Below are positions 8,327 through 51,430 of a stretch of 51,560 nucleotides of DNA, piece by piece. Positions within the stretch are counted from its first letter, which is position 1. The number at the start of each line of letters is the position of its first letter. Source of the stretch: a virus; the IMG/VR virus record IMGVR_UViG_3300050119_000364, positions 1 through 51,560 of that record; one strand, written 5' to 3'. Both the position numbers and the translations under genes were made by a program. The notes beneath the pieces were generated by a model, which saw only the letters and a program-made list of their open reading frames with translations, was not told the DNA's origin and made no database searches.

Positions 8327-8349
8327 ACCCTCAAAGTTATCCCCAGTTT

Positions 8350-8390
8350 GGGTTACGCGTCCTTGACGTAACCCTCCAGTGCGCTATTGT
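8350..8390 (+). promoter_or_regulatory. Promoter overlapped by an 8-bp operator-like palindrome
   Basis: GGGTTACG (8350-8357) and CGTAACCC (8367-8374) are perfect complements across 9 bp. A promoter-like TTGACG (8363-8368), 16 bp, TATTGT (8385-8390) overlaps the right half. A repressor bound to the palindrome would block the -35 element. It points rightwards into the early operon. The sequences are clear; the regulatory reading is inferred. Confidence 0.5.
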
Positions 8391-8503
8391 TAAGGCATGG
8401 TTGATAGGCGGTTCGGGGCGATCACCTCACCCGATTCCTCCGACGCAAGGGACCCAACCTCCGCCGCCTGTCCCTGTTCTCTTACGCGGTTCGTTCTTTG
8501 AAT

Positions 8504-8621
8504 GCTATGAGTGAGTCAGACCGATGGGCTAATGCACGTAGGCGTCGGTCGTCTGTTTCGACGGACAACAATCTGCAGGTTGTGCCGAGGTGCAGGGGTT
8601 CGAGTCCCCACCGCTCATAGC
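8504..8621 (+). ncRNA. tRNA-like structured RNA candidate
   Basis: The ends GCTATGAGTG (8504-8513) and CGCTCATAGC (8612-8621) pair over 10 bp with one G-U. The 3' part has a textbook T-arm: GGGG (8595-8598), loop TTCGAGT, CCCC (8606-8609). Internal helices include ACCGA/TCGGT, GTCG/CGAC and ACAAC/GTTGT. At about 118 nt it is too long for a tRNA, has no encoded CCA, and I cannot assign a sound anticodon. It may be a tRNA-like phage RNA or a decayed tRNA. Confidence 0.4.
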
Positions 8622-8640
8622 TCTCAAAGCGCGAATCTAA

Positions 8641-8647
8641 AGGTCGC
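8641..8647 (+). promoter_or_regulatory. Leader element AGGTCGC, variant of a recurring leader motif
   Basis: TAAAGGTCGCAAAC lies 25 nt before the ATG at 8673. Closely similar sequences (TAAAAGGTCGARRAAYC) precede the genes at 15510, 36512, 37068 and 44102. Confidence 0.35.
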
Positions 8648-8672
8648 AAACTAACCAACCCCATCCCAATCC

Positions 8673-8941: not shown

Positions 8942-9646
8942 ATGAAGTTCGAAATAAAGCACCGCTTGAATGGAGAAATCCTATTCAAAATAGAAACCGA
9001 TAGTTGGAAGCTCGCGGTAGAGGCCGCGATAAAGGCAAAAGCCAACCTCCGCTCCGCCAACCTCAGCTCCGCCAACCTCAGCTCCGCCAACCTCAGCTCC
9101 GCCAACCTCAGCTCCGCCAACCTCAGCTCCGCCAACCTCAGCTTCGCCAACCTCAGCTCCGCCAACCTCAGCTCCGCCAACCTCAGCTTCGCCAACCTCA
9201 GCTCCGCCAACCTCAGCTTCGCCAACCTCAGCTCCGCCAACCTCCGCTTCGCCAAGAACATTCCGCAGTCTTATATCAACATCTGCTCACGGGACATGCT
9301 TTTTGTCTTTGAGCATTTGAAATCGGAGCTTCCCTTTCTTCGTAAGGCGCTCATAGACGGAAAAGTGAATGGGACTCAGTACGCGGGCGATTGTGCGTGC
9401 CTCATCGGGACGCTCGCAAAAGCGAAGAACATAACCACGCCAGACGACATCGAAAAGAAGATTTGCCCGCTTATTCCCTTCTACGACATGGGGCTTCACA
9501 ATCCCGGCGAGCAGTGGTTCTGGCAAATCAGGGAAGGCGACACGCCCGACAAGAGCTTTTTTGCAAAGCACGCTGTAGAGCTAATTGATTCGGTCCTGAA
9601 AACGGCGACCGTCGTAAGGAAGCCGCGCAAACCAACGAAGAAATAA
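8942..9646 (+). CDS. Pentapeptide-repeat protein
   Basis: A 234-residue protein. An N-terminal segment MKFEIKHRLNGEILFKIETD resembles the lead-in of phage pentapeptide proteins. Residues about 34-103 are 14 near-identical ANLSS/ANLSF repeats, which fold as a right-handed quadrilateral beta-helix. A globular C-terminal region of about 130 residues follows, with two Cys (GDCACLIG) and a basic end. Some pentapeptide proteins mimic DNA and inhibit gyrase or bind nucleases; whether this one does is unknown. It opens a run of small early genes with A/C-rich leaders (TTAATCC here). Confidence 0.8.
   Translation: MKFEIKHRLNGEILFKIETDSWKLAVEAAIKAKANLRSANLSSANLSSANLSSANLSSANLSSANLSFANLSSANLSSANLSFANLSSANLSFANLSSANLRFAKNIPQSYINICSRDMLFVFEHLKSELPFLRKALIDGKVNGTQYAGDCACLIGTLAKAKNITTPDDIEKKICPLIPFYDMGLHNPGEQWFWQIREGDTPDKSFFAKHAVELIDSVLKTATVVRKPRKPTKK
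9041..9250 (+). repeat. Tandem 15-bp repeat, 14 units
   Basis: The unit GCCAACCTCAGCTCC is repeated 14 times in frame with the pentapeptide gene, with changes only at a few positions (CTCC to CTTC, CAG to CCG). The near identity at the DNA level points to recent expansion, and unit number probably varies between relatives. Confidence 0.95.
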
Positions 9647-15819: not shown

Positions 15820-15930
15820 ATGAAGACCATCACTGAGCGCCAAACATTCCCGGAGCATTGGAGCAAGAAGCGTATCGCGCGGTACAGGCGTCGATTTGAG
15901 AAACGGCTCGCGAAGCAGCAGAAGAAATGA
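15820..15930 (+). CDS. Small basic protein, 36 aa
   Basis: An ATG at 15820 opens 36 codons of strongly basic sequence (MKTITERQTFPEHWSKKRIA, then RYRRRFEKRLAKQQKK). The stop overlaps the next start as ATGA (15927-15930), which supports real translation. Probably nucleic-acid binding. Confidence 0.5.
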   Translation: MKTITERQTFPEHWSKKRIARYRRRFEKRLAKQQKK

Positions 15931-16127
15931 TCGACCATTACACCATAAAATTCGGCCCGGCAGTGAGCCAGAAGGAGCTTGAGAAGGCGCTGAACGAAGC
16001 AAAGCATCCGGACGAGTTGAAAAAGTTCCGGCATGTAAAAGTCCGCATCCAGTTCATTGGAGACATCGAAGATTTGCAGAAGATGTCTCAACATTTAAGA
16101 GAATTGGCGCACCCGACACATCCCTGA
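15927..16127 (+). CDS. Hypothetical protein, 66 aa
   Basis: A 66-residue alpha/beta protein (TIKFGPAVSQKELEKALNEA, then VKVRIQFIGD). It is translationally coupled to the small basic gene before it. No family is recognised. It is the last plus-strand gene before the minus-strand insert at 16140-16784. Confidence 0.5.
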   Translation: MIDHYTIKFGPAVSQKELEKALNEAKHPDELKKFRHVKVRIQFIGDIEDLQKMSQHLRELAHPTHP

Positions 16128-46199: not shown

Positions 46200-46793
46200 T
46201 TGTTGGGAATTAAACTTCTTCCGGAAGATATTAGAGCAACGTATCAAATTGAAGAGCGCCACCACGCGTGCGCGATTCTCAAGCTCGATTTTCCCAACGA
46301 ATGGGATGATCTCATCGCGGTATTGCGCGACTTCACCCTCAAGAAGAGCGCAGTGCAGGCGAAGGGAGGACGCAAATCTCCGATCGCCGAATCGATCGAC
46401 GGGCTCTTTGCCGGACGCAAATGGGTGGAAAAGAATTTCGAGATCAACGTCACTGCCGACGGTGTTTCGACCCTCGCGCCAACGCATTTGGTGGACTACT
46501 ACAAGAACCGGATCGCCATCGAGACCGAATGGAATAATAAGGACCCCTTTTTCGATCGCGATCTAACGACGTTCCGTTTGCTCTTCGACTTGAACGTCCT
46601 GAGCGTCGGGATCATCATCACGCGGGCAGATGAACTGCAGCAGATTTTCAAAGACGTGGGCAAGAAGACCGCTGCGGGCGCGTCCACGACTCACATGTCG
46701 AAGCTGATTCCCAAGATGGCGAACCGCGCTGGCGGCGGGTGCCCTGTCCTCGGGTTCGGAATCACCATAAAGAAGTTCGACCCGAACGCCTAA
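46200..46793 (+). CDS. BglII-family type II restriction endonuclease
   Basis: A 197-residue protein. The stretch IAIETEWNNKDPFFDRDLTT (about 101-120) is the signature of the BglII-family nucleases, with the acidic residues and Asn-Lys expected at the active site. DLNVLSVGIIITRADELQQI and a C-terminal GGGCPVLGFGITIKKFDP complete the fold. No ATG fits: the start is TTG at 46200 or TTG at 46203, the latter with GGAG 7 nt upstream. A weak start would keep the nuclease low. It is convergent with the methyltransferase gene and the stop codons overlap. BglII itself cuts AGATCT; the specificity of this enzyme cannot be read. Confidence 0.8.
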   Translation: MLGIKLLPEDIRATYQIEERHHACAILKLDFPNEWDDLIAVLRDFTLKKSAVQAKGGRKSPIAESIDGLFAGRKWVEKNFEINVTADGVSTLAPTHLVDYYKNRIAIETEWNNKDPFFDRDLTTFRLLFDLNVLSVGIIITRADELQQIFKDVGKKTAAGASTTHMSKLIPKMANRAGGGCPVLGFGITIKKFDPNA

Positions 46794-47485
46794 ACCTCGA
46801 AGAGCAGCCTCTCACCCTCGGGCAGTCTTCCACTTTGCGAATGATTCGCGTACGTGTTCCACGAGGGCGTGTACGATTCGTCTGCTTGATTGCCCCATGT
46901 TGTCCAACCCTTACGCTCACCGCGAGCGAAGAGTTCGAGGAATGGACCCCTGCTGCACGACTCGATGATCTTGTACTGTTCATCCGGCTTCCGAGAGTGT
47001 TCCCGCTTCCGGCTCGACAAATAGTTCACTTGTCGGCGCCCCGGCGCGAGCGTACGCGCGTTCTCCCCGCGGACGCCAAAGAGAATCAACTCAGTAACAT
47101 TGCGGAAATAAAATCCCACGCCGCGCCCGTCCGAACCGCCGTCTTTGCGGATCTTGTGCCACACGAGATTGCTTTTGTATTTGAATCCCCACGCCTGCAA
47201 CACCGCGATTCCCTCTGGCAACAGGGCATTCGGGCACCAGAGGTAGAGGTGAGCCGTAGGGGCCGCGATCGAGGAGACCGGTAGCTTGATGATGTCGTCA
47301 AGCTTCAATGTCCCGTAACGCGAGAGGCGCTTATGCTCGGGAGCGACCTTGCCGGTGCGGTTCTGGAATTGCCACGGCGGATCGCAGAGGATCGTACCGA
47401 ATTTTCGTTTACCAACGAACCCCAGCAGATCTTCAGCGGGGGAATGGGTCGTGTCGCTTGCCCGGCACGTCTTCATAGCCCTCAT
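46790..47485 (-). CDS. MT-A70 family DNA adenine methyltransferase
   Basis: A 231-residue protein. It has the catalytic DPPW motif in FGTILCDPPWQFQNRTGKVA (about 31-50), APTAHLYLWCPNALLPEGIA, and the SAM-binding ELILFGVRGE and FLELFARGERKGWTTWGNQA at the C-terminal end. MT-A70 enzymes make N6-methyladenine. Paired tail to tail with the BglII-family nuclease, it should protect phage and host sites. The ATG at 47485 was chosen; 47476 (ATG) and a TTG at 47548 are alternatives. Confidence 0.85.
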   Translation of the reverse strand: MRAMKTCRASDTTHSPAEDLLGFVGKRKFGTILCDPPWQFQNRTGKVAPEHKRLSRYGTLKLDDIIKLPVSSIAAPTAHLYLWCPNALLPEGIAVLQAWGFKYKSNLVWHKIRKDGGSDGRGVGFYFRNVTELILFGVRGENARTLAPGRRQVNYLSSRKREHSRKPDEQYKIIESCSRGPFLELFARGERKGWTTWGNQADESYTPSWNTYANHSQSGRLPEGERLLFEV

Positions 47486-47650
47486 GTTTGCATTTTCTTC
47501 GTCCCCCTGCAATTGGCAGACTGTGGACAACAGGGCTTGAATTCCCAATCTGGCATGCCATGCTTAAAGCGTCCCCAAACCATCCGCCGCCCTTCAATGT
47601 GGCGGCAGCGCGAATCAGCGCGGGCCGTGAGTGAGAGTACCGGCCGCATT

Positions 47651-48338: not shown

Positions 48339-48593
48339 ATGGTTCGTATTTCCTTCGCGCGAAACCGAATCCATAGTACTTTTCCAAGTACCATGTTCAA
48401 CTCCACGGAACTTAATAACATTCGCCGAACCCTTGAATACGACAAACAGGACCTTCGCCGCTTTGAAAACGATCCCCACACACCCATAGAATCAATTGCC
48501 ACGGTAAAGGGGATTATCAAAGCAAAAGAGGCCAAACTCGCCTTCTTTAGCGATCTACCAGTTTTCCCCAGCCTCCCCCTTGCGCGATCCTGA
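48339..48593 (+). CDS. Small helical hypothetical protein, 84 aa
   Basis: An 84-residue frame. The coding-like part begins at MFNSTELNNIRRTLEYDKQD (ATG at 48393) and is helical; the longer start at 48339 follows the leader AACCACA. The C-terminal residues are Pro-rich. It ends directly at the first helix of the structured region that follows. Moderate support only. Confidence 0.4.
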   Translation: MVRISFARNRIHSTFPSTMFNSTELNNIRRTLEYDKQDLRRFENDPHTPIESIATVKGIIKAKEAKLAFFSDLPVFPSLPLARS

Positions 48594-49475
48594 AGGTTTG
48601 CTTCAATGAAGGTGTTCCCGGAAGGGAGCGACCGAGCGCAACGCATCCGACGAACCTTTTGACGGGTGCGCGTGAGGACGAAAGTTCTCCCACGGCTTAC
48701 AAGCCGTAAACGCGCCTCGGTCAAAGGGTTTTTAGTTTCACCTGAGAGTGAAGTCGCGCCGGGCAATCCGGGCGACGAGCAGGGCAACGCTTCTACGACT
48801 TTGCGACCCTGTAATGCGGAATGGGATTCGTTCATTGAAAGATGTGATGATGCAGCAGAGCGCGCGCTGACACCGGTTGCATGCAAAGGGGGCGCGGCGG
48901 AAAGCGAACTGCTTGTCTACCCAAGAGGGATACCTACCGCAAAAAGGCCCGGCCCGCGAACGTTAAACTCGACAATGCGGATCGAGTAGCGGGAACTTTT
49001 GGACAGGGTTGCTAAGCTGAAGCGAGACTGACGAATGGCATCGTCTGCTGGTGACAATGAGAAAGGCGCCGTTCGACGGAGCGGCGAGCAAGTACCAAAC
49101 AAACCCAGCCATCACATTTTTCAACGAGCGAATCACTGGGTAGTTTGGTAGAGCCACCGCAAACGGAAACGCCGTCAAGAACGGCCTCTGAATGACGCAG
49201 GAAATGTCCTCCGGCTTCGAGGGCAGAGAAGGGCGATCGGTTTCCCCGTCCAGCTTCGATCCCTGCGATCCAACACGAAACGGCAAATCGGCGACGAGAC
49301 ATAGCGAAGGGTGGAACACAAAAGAGCCGCGATCGTTCGTTCTTTGAATGCTGAAGGAAAGCATGGCAAGCGACGTTGGAAACCGCCGGAAGCAGCCATG
49401 TGGCTTCCAGCCCTTCAGCACTCAGAGAGCGAATCGCCGATTTTCAAAACAGACTTCTCGTCTGTAAAAAGTCGG
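48592..49475 (+). ncRNA. Candidate large structured RNA (about 0.9 kb, GOLLD/ROOL-like or new)
   Basis: No convincing protein is seen between 48594 and 49500. Many helices can be read on the plus strand. 48592-48600 pairs with 48651-48659 (9 bp), enclosing a 6-bp helix with a GGAA loop (48614-48629) and CTTC/GAAG. A three-way junction follows at 48668-48715: GCGCGT/ACGCGC closes GAGGAC-GAAA-GTTCTC and ACGGCT-TACA-AGCCGT. Further helices are TTCAC/GTGAA (48737-48752), CAGGG/CCCTG (48780-48811), GACG/CGTC (49030-49045), GCCGT/ACGGC (49171-49185), TGCTGAAGG/CCTTCAGCA (49349-49420, 9 bp) and CCGATTTT/AAAAGTCGG (49437-49475) around ACAGAC/GTCTGT. GNRA loops on this strand only suggest plus-strand transcription. 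Confidence 0.65.
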
Positions 49476-49500
49476 ATGGCAAATCAGCGGGAAATCTTAA

Positions 49501-49665
49501 TTAGCCGCCCTTCTTTTCGGGTCTAGGCCATTCTTGGGTAGGCTGAACGCGTGAAGGAGCGGGGGCGCTATCGCCGATGCCTTCGTCAATCTTCCGAACA
49601 GGTCGTGGCGATGGTTGCGTCGGATTTAGGGGTTGTGTTGGATTTGGTTTTTTGTCCTCAGGCAT
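49501..49665 (-). CDS. Small Pro-rich protein, 54 aa
   Basis: An ATG at 49665 with GAGGA upstream opens 54 codons of Pro, Lys and Gln-rich disordered sequence (MPEDKKPNPTQPLNPTQPSP at the start, EWPRPEKKGG at the end). The start lies 8 nt inside the end of the SLATT-like gene, so the two are one operon. The stop falls just beyond the structured RNA region. Confidence 0.55.
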   Translation of the reverse strand: MPEDKKPNPTQPLNPTQPSPRPVRKIDEGIGDSAPAPSRVQPTQEWPRPEKKGG

Positions 49666-50206
49666 TTATTTCCTCATGTTCTGGCGGAAACCAGCAATTG
49701 TTGATGTTGATTTCTTCATTTACGCGTGCTTCAAGTCTGCGAATTTTATTTGTATTAGGATCAGCCCCTTTTCTCTCGAGCTCTTTGAATTTGGAACGAC
49801 AGTGCTCGAAAGCGGAATTTGTCTTTTGTGTGAGATCGCGTGCGACAGTCACATCCTCAATTAGACACTTTAGATCCATGTAAAGATCACAGTAGTGTGT
49901 GTGTAATTCTGCATAAAGCCGGACCCGGCTTTCTAATCGAAGGATCGGTTTCAGGAGCGCCAGAGCTGCCGCTGCTATGGTGAGATAGAACCATCCTTGT
50001 TGTGCGATCGGGCGCGGAGAATGTTTCCAGAAGGCGAACGGAGAACTGCCACCGGTTATTGCAATCGCAATGTCGTATGCCAGAGCTATTCGAGTCCAAC
50101 ACTTGAGCGATTCCGCATAGTAGAGAACATTTAGGCGGGCGGTTCTGTACCAGTTATATGTCTGGATCATCCGCTCGTATTTGTTTTGCACCGCCGCGGC
50201 CGCCAT
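49658..50206 (-). CDS. Two-TM SLATT-like membrane protein, possible defence effector
   Basis: A 182-residue protein. An N-terminal helix (KYERMIQTYNWYRTARLNVL) precedes two hydrophobic helices (about 46-60, WTRIALAYDIAIAITGG, and about 80-100, GWFYLTIAAAALALLKPIL), then long amphipathic helices (YAELHTHYCDLYMDLKCLIE). This plan fits SLATT-domain proteins, two-TM proteins that act as membrane effectors in several defence systems. No partner such as a nucleotide cyclase is present, so the comparison is only structural. It sits next to the integrase on the same strand, a typical place for lysogen-expressed genes. Confidence 0.6.
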   Translation of the reverse strand: MAAAAVQNKYERMIQTYNWYRTARLNVLYYAESLKCWTRIALAYDIAIAITGGSSPFAFWKHSPRPIAQQGWFYLTIAAAALALLKPILRLESRVRLYAELHTHYCDLYMDLKCLIEDVTVARDLTQKTNSAFEHCRSKFKELERKGADPNTNKIRRLEARVNEEININNCWFPPEHEEINA

Positions 50207-51352: not shown

Positions 51353-51378
51353 TTGGTGGCGGCGGGTAGGATCGAACT
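51353..51378. repeat. attR: 3' end of the tRNA-Met gene
   Basis: 51353-51374 equals 106-127; ACTA follows after one mismatch. The repeat lies within the intact tRNA gene, so the integrated phage keeps the tRNA functional. Confidence 0.93.
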
Positions 51379-51430
51379 ACCGACCTTGGGGTTATGAATC
51401 CCACGCTCTAACCATCTGAGCTACGCCGCC
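51354..51430 (-). tRNA. tRNA-Met (anticodon CAT)
   Basis: A 77-nt cloverleaf on the minus strand. The acceptor GGCGGCG pairs with CGCCGCC over 7 bp, followed by the discriminator A and an encoded CCA (51354-51356 as TGG on the plus strand). D-loop TAGCTCAGATGGTTAGAGC and T-loop GTTCGATCC are standard. The anticodon CAT lies at 51394-51396. The D-arm and loop sequence resemble elongator tRNA-Met, though tRNA-Ile with a modified CAT cannot be fully excluded. It is the integration site. Confidence 0.95.

What the first reader, a model, noticed from the sequence alone, without database searches (positions are those of the whole stretch)
48592..49475. A ~0.9-kb structured RNA candidate near the phage right end
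Between a terminator-ended operon and the minus-strand operon lies a region without a credible protein but full of helices: a 9-bp helix enclosing a GGAA-capped hairpin, a clean three-way junction (48668-48715) with a GAAA-capped arm, a 9-bp long-range helix (49349-49357 with 49412-49420), and a 3' hairpin with an 8-bp outer stem. GNRA loops occur only in the plus-strand reading. Phages are known to carry giant ornate RNAs (GOLLD, ROOL) of this size, with unclear function. This may be one of them or a new class.
Basis: partly seen in the sequence, partly recalled or inferred. Interest (0 to 1): 0.88.

Follow-up and report, generated by a model that had tools for sequence, protein, structure and literature searches.

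The report
New modular large phage RNA family
The stretch is a real, roughly 0.9-kb, non-protein-coding RNA gene that belongs to an apparently uncatalogued family found in about twenty phage sequences, built from a knotted 5' end, a tightly conserved core and interchangeable plug-in arms (some shaped like transfer RNA); it looks like another kind of giant phage RNA, and its job is still unknown.

Summary
No Rfam family (GOLLD and ROOL included) matches, even at permissive thresholds, but relatives exist. A related phage carries a shorter version at the same place. A 211-nt core is 94% identical there, although the phages' long alignable gene blocks are 68-83% and the integrase 66% identical in DNA. 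About 20 phage contigs share parts. Two elements define the family. (1) A 5' pseudoknot domain (48630-48733): two helices show compensatory changes at every pair in 12 phages, and one base covaries with two partners at once. (2) A recurring "module" stem (GUUCUUUGA...UCAGAGAGC) closing exchangeable domains: 17 copies, 16 of 20 pairs compensated, 0/500 shuffles. The window has two modules in this RNA and one in a second RNA at 8.4 kb. Three of 19 module domains hold a tRNA T-arm, against 0.04 expected. No reading frame is conserved. At least seven of 14 integrase-linked members run into a convergent gene, so the RNA is probably not a leader. Best reading: a stand-alone modular RNA, working like GOLLD/ROOL but not a member of either. 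The function is inferred.

The parts
48562..48609 (+). promoter-like region: TTTTCCCCAG upstream element, TTGCGC (48580-48585), CAATGA (48604-48609)
   Evidence: sequence; an equivalent TTATCCCCA(G)...CTTGCGC...TTCATGAT arrangement precedes the RNA in L009, L010, L013 and other members. The generic sigma-70 scan did not pick it, so it is weak evidence
48615..48628 (+). 5' hairpin P0, GGAA loop
   Evidence: a hairpin directly precedes helix a in the members read by eye; GAAA loop in L013
48630..48733 (+). D1, 5' pseudoknot domain: helix a 48630-48636/48716-48722; helix d 48642-48649/48663-48670; pseudoknot b 48653-48661/48722-48730; U-run 48729-48733
   Evidence: compensatory changes in all 12 pairs of a and d across 12 phages; single-sequence shuffle p = 0.0025 for the window; dual covariation of 48721 with 48631 and 48662
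48668..48715 (+). three-way junction within D1 (helix c with two arms)
   Evidence: kept with changed pairs in L029 (by eye)
48716..48835 (+). block 79% identical to L002
48825..49134 (+). module 1: 25-bp stem (48825-48849 with 49110-49134) closing a variable domain of about 260 nt
   Evidence: the L002 counterpart has a different interior
49124..49333 (+). conserved core, 94% identical to L002 (211 columns)
   Evidence: the most conserved block between the two phages
49336..49433 (+). module 2: stem GUUCUUUGA(49339-49347)/UCAGAGAGC(49422-49430), inner helix 49349-49357/49412-49420
   Evidence: absent from L002, so an optional cassette
49435..49489 (+). 3' domain: outer stem 49435-49443/49481-49489, inner hairpin 49449-49454/49460-49465
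   Evidence: 79% identical to L002, where the outer stem is intact
8341..8650 (+). second module-bearing RNA of the same phage: promoter-like TTGACG-16-TATTGT, module stem 8493-8501/8624-8632 closing a tRNA-like domain with T-arm GGGGUUCGAGUCCCC
   Evidence: a smaller module sits at the equivalent site in G004 (L073) and none in G013 (L037)

Best explanation
Shown by sequence: 48610-49490 (+) is a structured, non-coding RNA gene of a temperate-type phage and belongs to a new RNA family. It starts with a hairpin and a pseudoknotted domain (D1) ending in a U-run. Next comes a core conserved above the protein genes, and one to three exchangeable domains mounted on a standard stem (GUUCUUUGA/UCAGAGAAU), some of them tRNA-like. 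Inferred: it is transcribed from its own promoter as a free-standing RNA and works as RNA, in trans. D1 folds first, sets the 5' end and may gate read-through at the U-run; the core forms the scaffold; the standard stem is a socket displaying interchangeable cargo domains, including tRNA mimics, to a host target such as the translation apparatus or RNA-targeting defences. That is the GOLLD/ROOL way of working, reached with an unrelated sequence and fold.
For: Module stem: 93.8% of cells paired, 16 of 20 pairs with double changes, covariation 0.644 against 0.222 +/- 0.021 in shuffles, 0/500. 21 hits in 1.3 Mb, most in the RNA loci, none in reversed or shuffled controls. D1: 96% paired, all 12 variable pairs compensated, 0/500. 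L047/L054, from other phages, show 23 compensated pairs of 121 along about 600 nt. Core 94% identical, against 66% for the integrase and 68-83% for the long gene blocks. Type-B block 95% identical over 122 nt between L013 and L015. No conserved frame. At least 7 of 14 integrase-linked members have a convergent gene next, so the RNA is not a leader there. T-arms in 3 of 19 module domains against 0.04 expected. L002 lacks module 2, and the 8.4-kb module is tRNA-like here, small in G004 and absent in G013: cassettes come and go.
Against: No transcript, partner or phenotype is known. In L042, L043, L047, L053, L054 and L002 the RNA ends close to a codirectional gene, which fits a leader as well. 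The U-run after helix b looks like an intrinsic terminator. One module stem (L084, span 431 nt) appears to enclose a protein-coding sequence, which a pure RNA-cargo reading does not explain. Most modules have no recognisable tRNA part. tRNA covariance models and ARAGORN do not score the tRNA-like pieces.
Confidence: 0.5

Rival explanations
1. A cis-acting leader/attenuator: D1 is a conditional intrinsic terminator about 110-130 nt after the start, and the long RNA is the read-through leader of accessory or early genes.
For: A U-run follows the last D1 strand in all members, including those found without using the U-run as a search term (L003, L009, L010, L011, L013, L015, L027, L029). One D1 base can pair with two alternative partners, both conserved, as a switch would need. 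In L042, L053, L054, L045 and L002 a codirectional gene starts 0-105 nt downstream.
Against: In the window, L003, L009, L010, L011, L013 and L014 the next gene is convergent. Downstream genes differ everywhere (AIPR, HNH, VRR-NUC, membrane protein). A leader does not need a 0.2-kb core more conserved than the structural genes.
Confidence: 0.22
2. A precursor transcript: the module stems are processing stems (as around rRNAs) from which RNase III and other host enzymes release small tRNA-like or other RNAs that are the real products, for example decoys for tRNA-targeting defences.
For: One standard stem with widely varying content; tandem modules in L014 and L011; tRNA T-arms in three and a tRNA-Leu-like D-arm (TGGCGGAAAAGGTAGACGC) in L059 (resemblance to tRNA-Leu from general knowledge); GUUCUUUGAA resembles the boxA/spacer motif of rRNA operons (from memory, not tested).
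Against: The core outside the modules is the most conserved part, so the modules are not the only product. The stems are interrupted at a fixed mismatch and vary in length.
Confidence: 0.18
3. Module stems are ends of small mobile elements (DNA inverted repeats) inserted into non-coding DNA, with no RNA-level role.
For: Presence/absence polymorphism at two sites; L084 encloses a protein gene.
Against: G-U pairs are frequent at fixed positions, compensation is pair by pair, the strand is the same as the RNA in the integrase-linked loci, and there are no target duplications or shared interiors.
Confidence: 0.06
4. The region encodes proteins on the minus strand (open stretches up to 152 codons).
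For: Minus-strand open stretches in the window.
Against: A 1-nt indel against L002 inside the 94% block; pairs rather than codons are conserved.
Confidence: 0.01

Closest known systems
GOLLD RNA (Rfam family; PMC12286853)
   Same: Large phage/prophage non-coding RNA of about 0.8 kb with one conserved region, one variable region and a variable linker that sometimes holds tRNAs. The same traits occur here: core, exchangeable modules, tRNA-like pieces.
   Different: No sequence or covariance-model match; several module stems of one standard sequence rather than a single linker; a 5' pseudoknot with a U-run; oligomerisation untested.
ROOL RNA (Rfam family; PMC12286853)
   Same: Phage/prophage RNA with several pseudoknots, unknown function, variable linker.
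   Different: No model match. ROOL's ends are intertwined and co-evolve; here 5' and 3' parts are swapped between types (L003 and L015 share 33 identical 3' bases but differ 5').
rRNA-type precursor with processing stems and boxA
   Same: GUUCUUUGAA-like motif and long stems bounding RNA domains (from memory).
   Different: The motif here lies inside the stem and is paired with a complementary conserved strand; no rRNA-like content.
Lambdoid put/Q-type antitermination RNAs
   Same: Structured RNA at the start of a phage transcript with a terminator-like U-run (general knowledge).
   Different: Hundreds of further structured bases and often no downstream gene to control.

Membership tests
GOLLD | match to the GOLLD covariance model | tested here: not met
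   cmscan against all of Rfam 15, gathering and E<=10, with no match; also none in relatives at gathering
GOLLD | encoded in phage/prophage, often near tRNA genes | tested here: met
   phage contigs; tRNA-Met at 51354-51430 in the window, but it is the likely integration site rather than a tRNA island
GOLLD | conserved region plus variable linker, tRNAs sometimes in the linker | tested here: met
   as an analogy only; criterion
GOLLD | assembles into a multi-subunit RNA cage; induced at lysis | not testable with these tools
   needs cryo-EM/native gels and RNA-seq
ROOL | match to the ROOL covariance model | tested here: not met
ROOL | RNA-only nanocage | not testable with these tools
   needs cryo-EM
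HEARO, OLE and the remaining Rfam families | model match | tested here: not met
   only chance-level hits below gathering
tRNA genes (second RNA at 8.4 kb, L014, L059 modules) | full cloverleaf recognised by ARAGORN or RF00005 | tested here: not met
   T-arms present, so tRNA-like only
New family: D1 5' domain | helices a and d plus pseudoknot b, compensatory changes | tested here: met
New family: module stem | GUUCUUUGA/UCAGAGAAU-type stem continuing into variable helices on both sides | tested here: met

The most novel reading that the evidence does not exclude
A distinct family of giant phage RNAs built as a standard chassis: a pseudoknotted 5' domain and a conserved core carrying one to three plug-in sockets, each a stem of nearly fixed sequence, into which phages swap unrelated RNA domains, tRNA mimics among them. 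It would be a modular RNA delivery or display platform, possibly an RNA particle as in GOLLD and ROOL, with sockets also used in other phage transcripts.
Probability: 0.4. Interest if true: 0.93.

Novelty: new variant of a known kind. Interest (0 to 1): 0.85.

Why it matters
Only two giant phage RNA classes, GOLLD and ROOL, are described in the paper read here (PMC12286853), and neither has a known function. An independent family with the same genomic habit (phage-borne, large, variable tRNA-like inserts) suggests a recurrent need of phages that RNA meets. The standard socket stem is a handle the known classes lack: it predicts where cargo starts and ends, so cargo can be removed or exchanged and the effect measured. 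The family is undetected by Rfam, so it is invisible to current phage annotation.

Tried and rejected
Rfam with permissive E-values: only chance hits such as RAGATH-25 at 15 bits. Nucleotide searches of named phages: no match for the window, types B and C, L054 or L042. Exact core patterns in viral contigs found only the L002 contig. One genome-collection scan gave two coding chance hits, Pegethrix and Gallionella. Pattern AGTTCTTTGAATGATGG: five of seven hits were chance hits in coding DNA. D1 pattern in other phyla: 0 of 399 Pseudomonadota genomes; 6 of 292 cyanobacterial genomes, apparently not RNA (five share a near-identical, coding-like stretch; judged by eye). D1 pattern hits L044, L046 and L050 were discarded as coding or plain hairpins. 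L031-L033 showed no clear member; a 66-nt L033 stem was treated as chance. Relatives of the minus-strand 182-aa protein were sought without result. A MAFFT alignment of type-C D1 arms came out gapped, so pairs were counted by script: 135/135 cells paired, but registers were chosen per sequence. A ribozyme reading of D1 was considered and dropped: no conserved unpaired core apart from the pseudoknot strands. A covariance model was not built because no further public collection could be searched with it.

Full report
Setting. The window is a phage genome (the record held as G000 is a virus record). At its right end lie, on the plus strand, a DUF932-like gene, a BglII-type restriction gene and a 269-codon ORF, with an MT-A70 methylase on the minus strand; then the region in question; then on the minus strand a 54-aa ORF, a 182-aa ORF without family, a tyrosine integrase and tRNA-Met. 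The integrase next to a tRNA marks a likely attachment end. The host is unknown; the only named phage with a similar integrase infects Tunturiibacter, at 26% identity, a weak hint at Acidobacteriota.

Observation. Rfam gives nothing above chance.

First relative. The integrase led to L002 (contig G001), whose equivalent position holds a related but shorter element. Three blocks align: 48716-48835 at 79%, 49124-49333 at 94%, 49435-49493 at 79%. The two phages are relatives along their length, but their long gene blocks are 68-83% identical and the integrase 66%. The only other block above 90% is a 67-bp stretch at 15922. The core is thus the most conserved block between them, and it contains a 1-nt indel, which excludes a shared protein.

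Family. Wider integrase searches gave further contigs, and reading upstream of each integrase showed elements of the same design: L003, L009, L010, L011, L012, L013, L014, L015, L027, L029, L030. Sequence links are patchy and mosaic: L013 shares its first 106 nt with the window (82%) but its next block with L015 (95% over 122 nt), and L003 shares 33 identical 3' bases with L015. Members range from about 0.4 to 1.0 kb.

Domain D1. A search with the two pseudoknot strands alone (AACCTTTTG...CAAAGGGTTTTT) found eight more convincing contigs, several AT-rich and from unrelated phages. In 12 sequences the order is hairpin P0, a, d, b, d', c, a', b', U-run; b sits in the loop of hairpin d and pairs with b' immediately after a'. 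Each of the six pairs of a and six of d is replaced by a different pair in some sequences. The base before b' is U when both the first base of a and the base after b are A (6 sequences), and C when both are G (6 sequences), without exception. This points to a base triple or to two alternating pairings. Caveat: b and b' were the search terms, so their invariance says nothing, and the 5' partners of a and d were chosen for complementarity. The 3' strands are at fixed positions, and per-sequence shuffles give p <= 0.0125 for the summed helices in 10 of 12 sequences (L002 0.05, L052 0.10), against 0.28 and 0.52 for the hairpin hits L046 and L050; however, the coding hit L044 gave 0.026, so a single sequence is not decisive. 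Type-C members have another pseudoknot arrangement (a b d a' d' b' U-run): 135 of 135 cells paired in five sequences, 24 of 27 pairs with double changes, registers chosen per sequence.

Module stem. A stem GUUCUUUGA/UCAGAGAAU, often followed by a 1x1 mismatch and always flanked by variable helices, recurs in the RNAs: once (L003, L010, L013, L015, L029, L030, L042), twice (window, L011) or three times (L014). With a fixed register and no choice of partner, 17 copies give 93.8% pairing, 16 of 20 pairs with double changes and a covariation score of 0.644 against 0.222 +/- 0.021 in shuffles; sliding the strands destroys it. A scan of 1.3 Mb (both strands) of these phages gives 21 hits, nearly all in these loci, and none in reversed or block-shuffled controls. 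The stem closes domains of 81-300 nt that share no sequence. Three of 19 hold a tRNA T-arm (window 8.4 kb, L014, L059) where 0.04 would be expected. L059 also has a tRNA-Leu-like D-arm. None is a full tRNA to ARAGORN or Rfam.

Second RNA in the window. At 8341-8650 another promoter-like site precedes a module with a tRNA-like domain (z -4.6). The same leader in G004 carries an 81-nt module and in G013 none. Together with the absence of module 2 from L002, this shows that modules behave as cassettes.

Depth of structure elsewhere. L047 and L054, two diverged phages with the RNA inside an early gene block, give a common fold of 121 pairs along about 600 nt, 23 of them kept by compensatory changes, so the part beyond D1 is structured outside the window's lineage too.

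What it does. Context separates the options. In the window, L003, L009, L010, L011, L013 and L014 the RNA runs into a convergent gene; in L002, L015, L042, L053, L054 and L045 a codirectional gene follows, of a different type each time. A leader function cannot explain the first group, so I favour a free-standing RNA acting in trans, with D1 as a 5' folding or read-through gate, the core as scaffold and the modules as exchangeable displays. Steps shown: existence, structure, modularity, tRNA-like content, lack of coding. Steps inferred: transcription, stand-alone length, trans action, target. The U-run after D1 keeps an attenuator role alive (0.22), and the stems allow a precursor role (0.18).

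Known families. GOLLD and ROOL (PMC12286853) are the nearest in habit: phage-borne, large, variable linkers, tRNAs sometimes within the GOLLD linker. Membership fails on the model match; cage formation could not be tested. Four further library searches found no description of this family; the library is incomplete, so publication elsewhere cannot be excluded. I rate it a new variant of a known kind: a new family of large phage RNA with a modular design.

Noticed in passing
window 8341-8650 (+): Second module-bearing RNA with a tRNA-like domain, in the leader of a small-gene operon; equivalent site has an 81-nt module in L073 and none in L037.
   Followed up: partly
L084 7038-7468: A module-type stem between phage structural genes appears to enclose a protein-coding sequence of about 117 codons; unexplained.
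   Followed up: partly
window 46200-47548: BglII-type restriction endonuclease gene (PF09195) convergent with an MT-A70 methyltransferase gene: a phage-borne restriction-modification pair; the pair recurs in L003 (70% identical DNA).
   Followed up: partly
window 8123, 8337, 48562: TTATCCCCA(G)-like motif just upstream of promoter-like hexamers; the same motif precedes the RNA in most relatives. Possibly a phage regulon motif or DnaA-box-like site.
   Followed up: partly
L009, L012, L029, L030, L033, L042, L043, L053 (3' parts): Shared G-rich motif GGGGGUARGGGG, in several followed by a covarying hairpin and GAACCGAGG: a further 3' domain of the family not worked out.
   Followed up: no
L057 6843-7295; L012 about 1900-2260: HNH endonuclease genes directly after D1 (L057, PF01844) or HNH-like just upstream of the RNA (L012, by eye): the RNA locus may be a homing target.
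   Followed up: partly
L002 2273-3454 (-): AIPR (abortive infection) gene directly downstream of the RNA in the related phage.
   Followed up: partly
L056 3041-5392: Terminase-like large protein with a Hint/intein domain (PF13403, PF14890).
   Followed up: no
window 9020-9260: Tandem repeat of about 15 bases (CTCAGCTCCGCCAAC) in a reading frame, pentapeptide-repeat-like.
   Followed up: no
window 15922-15988: 67-bp stretch 92.5% identical to G001 across the end of one gene and start of the next, well above its surroundings.
   Followed up: no
window 49658-50206 (-): 182-aa ORF next to the RNA with no Pfam or PADLOC match, apparently with membrane segments.
   Followed up: partly
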